From: Salinisphaera sp.
Lineage (GTDB): Bacteria; Pseudomonadota; Gammaproteobacteria; Nevskiales; Salinisphaeraceae
Direction of reading: 5' to 3'
Assembly (NCBI GenBank): GCA_027858915.1
Contig: JAQIBT010000110.1
Span: forward strand, 1 to 64,000
DNA length: 64,000 nucleotides
Shown here piece by piece: positions 54,104-55,999 of the stretch. The translations under genes and the position numbers were made by a program. The first letter of the stretch is position 1. Each line of letters begins with the position of its first letter. The notes below the pieces were generated by a model that was not told the DNA's origin, ran no database searches, and saw only the letters and a program-made list of their open reading frames with translations.

Positions 54104-54212
54104 GTCTGCGCCTACCCGGCGGCCATCAAGCAATCCCGTCTCTTGATTATGTATCTAACTCTGCACGTCTGGCCGGACTAGGTTTCCCAGCACATCGATT
54201 GGTTTATACACT

Positions 54213-54241
54213 GTACGTGAGACTCTCGCCTCATACGGCTC
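54213..54241 (-). ncRNA. Partial group II intron domain V
   Basis: On the minus strand GAGCCGTATGAGGC, a GAGA tetraloop and GTCTCACGTAC match the classic bacterial domain V. The expected closing GGTTC is replaced by AGTGT, giving mismatches at the base of the helix. Beyond it the sequence shows no domain VI hairpin with a bulged A. The ribozyme is therefore probably inactive. Confidence 0.75.
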
Positions 54242-54263
54242 TTCCTGCCCAACCATTCGATGT

Positions 54264-55394
54264 TCAGCATCGCATTGAACCCCAGTGCGGAAACAACCTC
54301 GGGTACCGTTGCCTGACTCGCGCCAGCCATCGCGCGGCCTGAGCCGCGCTGCGATACCGTTTGTGGTATTTCTTGCGCACCCAGCTCACCAACCGATTTT
54401 CGAAGGTCCACCACAGCGCGGACAGTCCACTGCGCGTAAAGCGCCCGTAGTAGTTCAGCCAGCCTTGCAAGGTCGATCGATAGGCACGCGCCAGCTCAAA
54501 CACGGTTCGGTGGACTTGTTTGCCCCCGTGCCAGTGCTTGATCCGGCCGCCCATGCGCTGCATGGCTTTGCGGCTGACTGCCGGGGTGAATCCCACGACT
54601 AATTTGCCCGTCCTCAGACGTACGCCTTGGTCGCGGAAGGTATACCCCAGAAAGTCGAACTGCGTGGTGGGCCAATGCCGCTGCATCCAGCGATCAAACA
54701 CGTAGTGCAGGAACAGGTTTGCCAATAGCGGCGAGACTACGCCGCCTTGTGGCGTTCCTTGGGTGCGTTGTTCCTGCGTGCCATCCCGATATTGCACCGG
54801 GGCGGTCAGCCAGCGTTGGAGATAAAGCCGTTGCCAGCGTTCATTGATGTGTTTGTCGAGCGCGAGGTTGAGTAGATCGTGATCGATGGCATCAAAGAAG
54901 CCTTTGATATCCAGGTCCACGACCCACCTGGCCTGCCAGCAGCGTTGGCGGGTAACCGCCAGCGCCTGGTGCGCATCTCGGCCCGGTCGATAACCATACG
55001 AATCCGGGTGAAAGTGTCTTTCCAATTCCGGTTCGATGGCTTGCTTGACCACCATCTGTGCTACGCGATCGGCGACGGTGGGGATACCCAGCGGTCGTAT
55101 CCCGCCATCCGCTTTGGGGATGTCGACATGTTTGACCGCCGGTGGCAGGTAGCTGCCGGAACTCATGCGGTTCCACAGCTTGTACAGTTGGCCCGATAGA
55201 TCCGCTTCAAAATCAACGAGGCTTTGATCGTCGATGCCCGCTGCTCCGCCATTGGCTTTGACGCGTTTCCACGCCGCCCACACCGCGCGTTTGCTGATGT
55301 CGAATGGTTTTGTCGTCTGACCTTGATTCATCCCGCTTCGCGGTTGGTCACGGTCAACCGACCGGACAGGCTCGCCACTTCGCTCCAGCGCCAT
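54264..55394 (-). CDS. Group II intron maturase, reverse transcriptase active site deleted
   Basis: A 376-residue LtrA-type protein from ATG 55394, with AAGGGG about 9 nt upstream; ATG 55331 is another option. RT blocks are clear: IPKADGGIRPLGIPTVADR, SYGYRPGRDAHQAL, VVDLDIKGFFDAIDHDLL and GTPQGGVVSPLLANLFLHYVF in part. After FDRWMQRHWP the frame jumps to TTQFDFLGYTF, so the segment that should hold the YADD catalytic motif, roughly 60-70 residues, is missing while the frame stays open (junction near 54668). The maturase X domain (GWLNYYGRFTRSGLSALW) remains. No endonuclease domain is seen. The protein cannot be an active polymerase. Confidence 0.88.
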   Translation of the reverse strand: MALERSGEPVRSVDRDQPRSGMNQGQTTKPFDISKRAVWAAWKRVKANGGAAGIDDQSLVDFEADLSGQLYKLWNRMSSGSYLPPAVKHVDIPKADGGIRPLGIPTVADRVAQMVVKQAIEPELERHFHPDSYGYRPGRDAHQALAVTRQRCWQARWVVDLDIKGFFDAIDHDLLNLALDKHINERWQRLYLQRWLTAPVQYRDGTQEQRTQGTPQGGVVSPLLANLFLHYVFDRWMQRHWPTTQFDFLGYTFRDQGVRLRTGKLVVGFTPAVSRKAMQRMGGRIKHWHGGKQVHRTVFELARAYRSTLQGWLNYYGRFTRSGLSALWWTFENRLVSWVRKKYHKRYRSAAQAARWLARVRQRYPRLFPHWGSMRC

Positions 55395-55999
55395 TACAGC
55401 CCCTTCATCGCTACCACGAACGAGTCCGCCCCTGTGCCGCGCATCGGTACTCTGGGCCTTGTGGGGTCTCCACTTGGCCAGCTCCCTTTGCATCGCGGCG
55501 ACAGGTTCTCGAGTTCCTTGTAAACGCCTGTCCGTAAGCCATGCCACCTATACGCCGGTTGCCGATGGGCCAGCACAGGGCGGCCGCCCATCTTCTCCCA
55601 TGCCTGTACCAGCGGCATCGTTTTGACAACATCTAGGATTATTTCGAGGCCTCATCAATGGTTCACTTCCGTTCATCTCTTACGCACCTACCTGACCGAT
55701 TCTCGACCGGCCTTTTCCCAACTCGCTCACCGCCATCGCTCTTGACGACAGCAGCAGTGGGCGGTTTGACACCAGCGCCCTGACGCCGATGTCGAGGGGC
55801 CTTCCCTCATCGCTTACAAAGTTCGAACAGCAGGGCTGTTCTTCTCGACACACTGGTACCTAATCAAGTCATGTCTTGAATCTGCGAAATCTGCGGATAA
55901 ATGCTTTCTGTATTAGCCCGGTTTACGCGCGTTCGCGTTCATTCACGGACGATCCGAGCTTGCTGCTTTTCAAACGCCCGCTGCAGTCTCCGGTCTTGG

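What the first reader, a model, noticed from the sequence alone, without database searches (positions are those of the whole stretch)
54264..55394. Group II intron reverse transcriptase lost its YADD core by an in-frame deletion
All N-terminal RT blocks and the maturase domain are present, but the frame runs directly from RWMQRHWP to TTQFDFLGYTF. The intervening RT5 region with the catalytic YADD, some 60-70 residues, is absent. The frame remains open over 376 codons, so this may be a recent deletion, or a protein kept for RNA splicing without retromobility. The junction at about 54668 has a short CCC-A overlap suggesting microhomology.
Basis: partly seen in the sequence, partly recalled or inferred. 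Interest (0 to 1): 0.55.

Follow-up and report, generated by a model that had tools for sequence, protein, structure and literature searches.

The report
Decayed group II intron, two deletions
A once-mobile self-splicing bacterial intron has lost both the heart of its copying enzyme and the end of its own catalytic RNA, so it is most likely an ordinary dead remnant rather than a specialised splicing helper.

Summary
On the minus strand lies a group II intron of the RF01999 type (5' end 55853) whose RT/maturase frame (ATG 55331, stop 54264; 355 codons) passes from RT4 straight to RT7. In 17 of 18 same-type loci scored (some are copies of one another), YADD and FDFLG lie exactly 168 nt apart, which fixes the loss at 177 bp (59 codons), in register, with YADD inside.

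Intron sequence stops at 54213, inside domain V (29 of 34 nt). The rest of D5 and all of D6 are gone; a dispersed genomic repeat follows. Complete D5-D6 matches in 4 of 4 relatives and 19 of 20 further loci given. Such an intron should not splice, and no second RF01999 core was found in its draft genome, so a kept 'splicing-only maturase' is unlikely.

EBS1 still pairs 6/6 with the 5' exon, so it arrived as an ordinary mobile intron. Outside the gap the protein shows no clear excess of changes at conserved sites, so the losses may be recent.

The parts
54213..55853 (-). group II intron remnant, from its 5' end (GTGTG) to the break inside domain V
   Evidence: 5' end set beside relatives L032, L039, L040; break read from the D5 comparison
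55854..55859 (-). 5' exon IBS1 (GTACCA)
   Evidence: 6 of 6 Watson-Crick with EBS1; the same scan gives 6-7 pairs at a similar place in L032, L039, L040
55690..55808 (-). ribozyme core, Rfam RF01999 group-II-D1D4-2
   Evidence: 106.9 bits, gathering 36, full model 1-118
55606..55611 (-). EBS1 (TGGTAC), intron nt 243-248
54264..55331 (-). RT/maturase reading frame, 355 codons, lacking RT5-RT6
54675..55121 (-). N-terminal RT part (Pfam RVT_1 match, profile 1-145 of 205)
   Evidence: residues 143-291 of P0001
54654..54671 (-). deletion junction (P-TTQ-FD); 177 bp with YADD missing here
54348..54563 (-). maturase domain X (Pfam GIIM)
   Evidence: residues 329-400 of P0001
54213..54241 (-). truncated domain V: first 29 of 34 nt
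   Evidence: RF00029 model positions 5-34 of 77, 27.8 bits against gathering 40; side by side
54142..54209 (-). right half of a dispersed genomic repeat ending GATACATAATCAAG, next to the broken domain V
   Evidence: copies in C24 and C15; terminal 14-mer at 8 places, this one included, with up to 1 mismatch, reversed control 0
55863..55950 (-). another dispersed genomic repeat in the 5' flank
   Evidence: 17 partial matches, 74-97% identity, elsewhere in the genome

Best explanation
A group II intron of the RF01999 type, whose protein matches RT and maturase families only, inserted between recJ and a Rieske gene through EBS1-IBS1 pairing. It then decayed by two losses: 177 bp inside the RT frame removed RT5-RT6 with the YADD active site, and a separate loss removed the last 5 nt of domain V, all of domain VI and probably the left part of a neighbouring repeat. 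The element can neither reverse transcribe nor, very probably, splice. The open frame is a young leftover. Shown: both losses, the 5' end with its EBS1-IBS1 pairing, and that no other full copy of this intron and no second RF01999 core was found in the draft genome. Inferred: order and age of the losses, slippage between short similar stretches as their cause, and loss of splicing (no RNA data).
For: YADD gap of fixed size. D5 cut and D6 missing, while 4 of 4 relatives and 19 of 20 loci given out of 80 fetched match RF00029 over positions 1-77. The sequence after the cut is a genomic repeat found elsewhere without the intron, and 4 of its 7 other copies show a left half that is missing here (by eye). 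EBS1-IBS1 6/6. In 10 of 13 same-genus genomes recJ lies 45-704 bp from the Rieske match, too close for this intron, and none of the 13 stretches read holds an IEP match; in 3 no recJ was in the stretch. Outside the gap the protein breaks 2 of 69 N-side and 1 of 15 C-side conserved columns, against means of 1.30 (sd 1.74) and 0.14 (sd 0.38) in 97 other rows, so decay has barely begun. PMC5894124 (section 7 read) describes inactivation followed by loss of the 3' end as general; PMC4424553 (passages) says the majority of bacterial copies are truncated or inactivated.
Against: The frame is intact, the gap keeps the frame, and conserved sites are mostly kept, which a protein under selection would also show. 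The C-side value (1 of 15) is above the mean but met or exceeded by 13 of 97 rows, the N-side value (2 of 69) by 28 of 97. dN/dS could not be measured: dS is undefined or very high for the window (the closest stretch, 95 codons of L098, gives dN 0.17, dS 2.6). No empty site could be aligned, so the original 3' flank is unknown.
Confidence: 0.86

Rival explanations
1. The YADD-less protein is kept as a splicing-only maturase, acting in trans on other introns of the genome.
For: Open frame of 355 codons, in-frame deletion, domain X kept; conserved columns largely kept; a complete D5-D6 of similar style stands on contig C1 and two more full RF00029 matches lie on C102 and C109. Organelle precedents and one bacterial precedent exist (PMC4424553, passages).
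Against: Its own ribozyme end is broken; no second RF01999 core found; C1 gave no significant RT match (best E 0.12, first half) and has a DDE transposase frame directly before D5; the genome holds other RTs, 34-45% identical. RT5-RT6 form part of the palm (recalled), so the fold itself is doubtful.
Confidence: 0.06
2. The 177-bp gap is an assembly or sequencing artefact.
For: Draft genome of 169 contigs; reads cannot be examined.
Against: No other long copy of the intron body was found (40 of 87 first-look candidates scored; besides short flank repeats one 133-bp, 68% match in the RT of C110), it lies well inside a 188-kb contig, the gap is in frame and in register; the D5 loss is a second, separate change.
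Confidence: 0.05
3. The intron is a fragmented, trans-splicing one whose D5-D6 is supplied from elsewhere, for example C1.
For: C1 carries a complete D5-D6 of the same 3'-end style; functional fragmented introns exist (PMC3410883, search listing with start of abstract only).
Against: Here the break is inside D5 itself, not in a loop; the D5 helix sequences of C1 and the window differ.
Confidence: 0.02

Closest known systems
Truncated or inactivated bacterial group II introns (for example RmInt1-like fragments, PMC5894124 section 7)
   Same: 5' end and D1-D4 kept, 3' end lost, stranded between host genes
   Different: here most of the IEP frame survives and carries its own in-frame loss of RT5-RT6
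O.i.I2 of Oceanobacillus iheyensis (PMC4424553, passages): bacterial IEP lacking YADD
   Same: open IEP frame without YADD
   Different: O.i.I2 is described as an ML-class intron with exons of radC and inferred maturase activity; the window intron has no complete D5-D6 and sits between genes
MatK and other organelle maturases without RT activity (PMC4424553, passages)
   Same: domain X kept, RT activity lost
   Different: MatK serves several chloroplast introns; no client with the same core is visible here
Introns of Halomonas salipaludis (L141), G043 (L032) and a Caballeronia plasmid (L041)
   Same: same RT/maturase type, 49-63% identity over aligned parts; L141 and L032 share the RF01999 core
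   Different: they keep YADD and complete D5-D6; L041 itself gave no RF01999 match, its 5' part being missing beside an IS256 gene

Membership tests
Group II intron (RF01999 type), descent | D1-D4 core | tested here: met
   RF01999 106.9 bits, gathering 36
Group II intron (RF01999 type), descent | EBS1-IBS1 pairing at the 5' junction | tested here: met
   6 of 6 at intron nt 243, the only full pairing in nt 151-360; relatives at 247, 255, 268, each with one or more weaker pairings elsewhere
Group II intron, functional | complete domain V | tested here: not met
   29 of 34 nt; 27.8 bits against 40
Group II intron, functional | domain VI with branch point and 3' splice site | tested here: not met
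   RF00029 positions 35-77 unmatched
Mobile group II intron IEP (LtrA type) | RT0-RT7 with YADD | tested here: not met
   RT5-RT6 absent
Mobile group II intron IEP (LtrA type) | maturase domain X | tested here: met
   GIIM 33.2 bits, cut-off 23
Splicing-only intron with degenerate IEP (O.i.I2-like) | YADD lost but ribozyme complete | tested here: not met
Splicing-only intron with degenerate IEP (O.i.I2-like) | maturase activity retained | not testable with these tools
   needs RNA and protein assays

The most novel reading that the evidence does not exclude
The reading frame is being turned into a free RNA-binding maturase without RT activity: both the window intron and, independently, L114 lost YADD by in-frame deletions (177 and 87 bp) that leave domain X in frame, which would hint that bacterial introns can pass through a maturase-only stage.
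Probability: 0.05. Interest if true: 0.6.

Novelty: new member of a known kind. Interest (0 to 1): 0.2.

Why it matters
It is a clean snapshot of early intron death: 5' recognition intact, protein frame still open, but the RT active site and the ribozyme 3' end both gone. It also shows why an open frame alone should not be taken as a kept maturase: the RNA end must be checked. The by-product, L114, is a better place to test whether bacteria keep RT-dead maturases.

Tried and rejected
Other carriers of the same gap: a junction peptide against plasmids gave 77 records covering at least 80% of it; 30 rows were listed, 12 in two pieces and 18 in one piece (Shigella and E. coli), the latter looking like the same deletion. 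One of these 18, an E. coli record, was opened: it reads FERYADD and then similarity ends, so the match was a chance extension. The other 17, and the records not listed, were not opened.

Empty site: one search printed the stretch after the Rieske match in 13 same-genus genomes, but loci of the genome search keep the contig's orientation, so for 7 of them this was the wrong side. Redone by coordinates: recJ lies 45-704 bp away in 10 of 13, is not in the stretch in 3 (L055, L056, L061), and no IEP match occurs in any. The window's flanks gave no alignable counterpart in the 13 (two short matches of 23 and 16 bases, in the dispersed repeat of the recJ side, both in L058).

Selection: NG86 dS is undefined or very high for the window. 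For L088 against L132 and L133 dN/dS is 0.077 and 0.075, against 0.097 for L132-L133, which may reflect mostly the time before the deletion.

Microhomology: in 14 intact relatives the two would-be break sites share only scattered bases, strongest by eye in L041; not enough for a claim.

Close relatives: a first scan of genome contigs with the window protein alone confirmed none of 21 candidates; the alignment query was needed.

Host name: not determined; a guess of genus from memory was used as a paper search term (0 papers) and is not claimed. Structure prediction was not run.

Full report
What is there. The finding lies on the minus strand. The 427-codon open frame (GTG 55547 to 54264) matches Pfam RVT_1 over profile positions 1-145 of 205 and GIIM over 1-75 of 80, and NCBIfam TIGR04416 above its cut-off. 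Rfam places a group-II-D1D4-2 core (RF01999) at 55808-55690 with 106.9 bits. Alignment with relatives puts the protein start at the ATG at 55331; the sequence upstream is conserved intron RNA that happens to be open.

The RT gap. The frame joins HWP to TTQFDFLGYTF; no [YF]xDD occurs anywhere in it. A motif scan of 32 loci found both YADD-like and FDFLG-like motifs of this type in 18; the spacing is 168 nt in 17 and 173 in L040, which is frameshifted. These 17 are not all independent: L093, L108, L110 and L112 are four copies in one genome, and L111 overlaps L092. Five further loci belong to other intron types (138 or 147 nt) and nine gave no true pair. With the register kept, the window lacks 177 bp, 59 codons. 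That set is ranked by E-value and so favours whole proteins. Of 7 viral-contig loci, 4 have YADD, one YADA (L201), one stops at FERY (L197) and one is cut near its end (L199).

The ribozyme end. With permissive thresholds the window's domain V matches RF00029 only at positions 5-34 of 77, 27.8 bits against a gathering score of 40; L032, L039, L040 and L041 match 1-77 with 53.3-58.2 bits. Of the 80 named-genome loci, 20 were given to Rfam; 19 match RF00029 over 1-77 beside the RT and L118 does not; 18 match RF01999, the two others (L117, L130) being close to a contig edge. Side by side, the window follows its relatives to ...TCACGTAC at 54213 and then leaves them. From about 54209 the sequence is a repeat that occurs in contigs C24 and C15 without an intron; its terminal 14-mer has 8 places in the genome, the window's included, at up to one mismatch, with none for the reversed control. 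Four of the 7 other copies have a similar left half (CGCGCA-CAGCGCGAA or close to it) that is missing in the window (by eye). So D5 is cut after 29 of 34 nt and D6 is gone. That domains V and VI are needed for splicing is established knowledge, not tested here.

The intact end. The intron begins GTGTG at 55853. Bases -6 to -1 of the 5' exon (GTACCA) pair 6 of 6 with TGGTAC at intron nt 243-248, the only full pairing in nt 151-360; the same scan finds 7, 7 and 6 pairs at nt 247, 268 and 255 of L032, L039 and L040, L039's with two G-U pairs, and a few weaker pairings elsewhere in each. The element therefore appears to sit where it first inserted.

Context. It lies between recJ (minus strand; Pfam DHH, DHHA1, RecJ_OB) and a Rieske gene (plus strand) that follows a class-V aminotransferase (the name sufS is recalled). 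No other long DNA copy of the intron body was found in the 169-contig draft (40 of 87 candidates scored) and no second RF01999 core (150 of 233 scored). Four other RT matches in the genome have 34-45% identity. Among 60 relatives other than itself, 14 have an RT match, the best 61% (G043); of the 13 same-genus genomes only G007 has one, at 40%. In 10 of those 13 recJ lies 45-704 bp from the Rieske match, and none of the 13 stretches holds an IEP match.

Is the protein decaying? In a query-anchored alignment of 99 rows (102 loci; L197, L199 and L201 dropped as incomplete), the window breaks 2 of 69 N-side and 1 of 15 C-side columns that are at least 95% conserved in the others; the 97 rows other than the window and L088 average 1.30 (sd 1.74) and 0.14 (sd 0.38). 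This is not clearly different from an intact protein, so the deletions are recent or the frame is still constrained. High or undefined dS prevents a direct test.

A second case. It matches RF01999 (82.0 bits) and RF00029 1-77 (52.5 bits). The contig begins at about the second base of the intron, so the 5' junction cannot be seen, and it is the only copy found in that draft. Unlike the window intron it could still splice.

Literature. PMC4424553 (passages) states that in bacteria degenerate IEPs are rare, names O.i.I2 as the only known example then, and says the majority of bacterial copies are truncated or inactivated. [quoted passage not shown] PMC2882425 (passages) and PMC4476101 (passages) give cyanobacterial and plastid cases of altered YADD or ORF loss; PMC3552965 was seen in passages. 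I did not find a report of this particular intron, but only four searches were made.

Verdict. It is an ordinary intron remnant, probably caught early.

Noticed in passing
Its 5' junction is at the contig end.
   Followed up: partly
L049:651-726 (G000 contig C1): A lone D5-D6 with a similar 3' end stands directly after a frame that matches Pfam DDE_Tnp_1, with no significant RT match: another intron remnant in the same genome.
   Followed up: partly
L118 (Desulfurivibrionaceae MAG), RT5: RT5 reads YADN instead of YADD, and this is the only one of 20 loci without an RF00029 match over the gathering score; possibly a degenerate intron.
   Followed up: no
L201 (viral contig), RT5; L197 (viral contig): L201 reads YADA in an otherwise open stretch; similarity of L197 stops at FERY, just before YADD.
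   Followed up: no
window 55863-55950 and 54142-54209: Two different dispersed repeats flank the intron. The 5' flank also holds CTTGATTAGGTACC, close to the reverse complement of the 3' repeat's end (12 of 14 by eye), as if the intron had entered an inverted copy of that repeat.
   Followed up: partly
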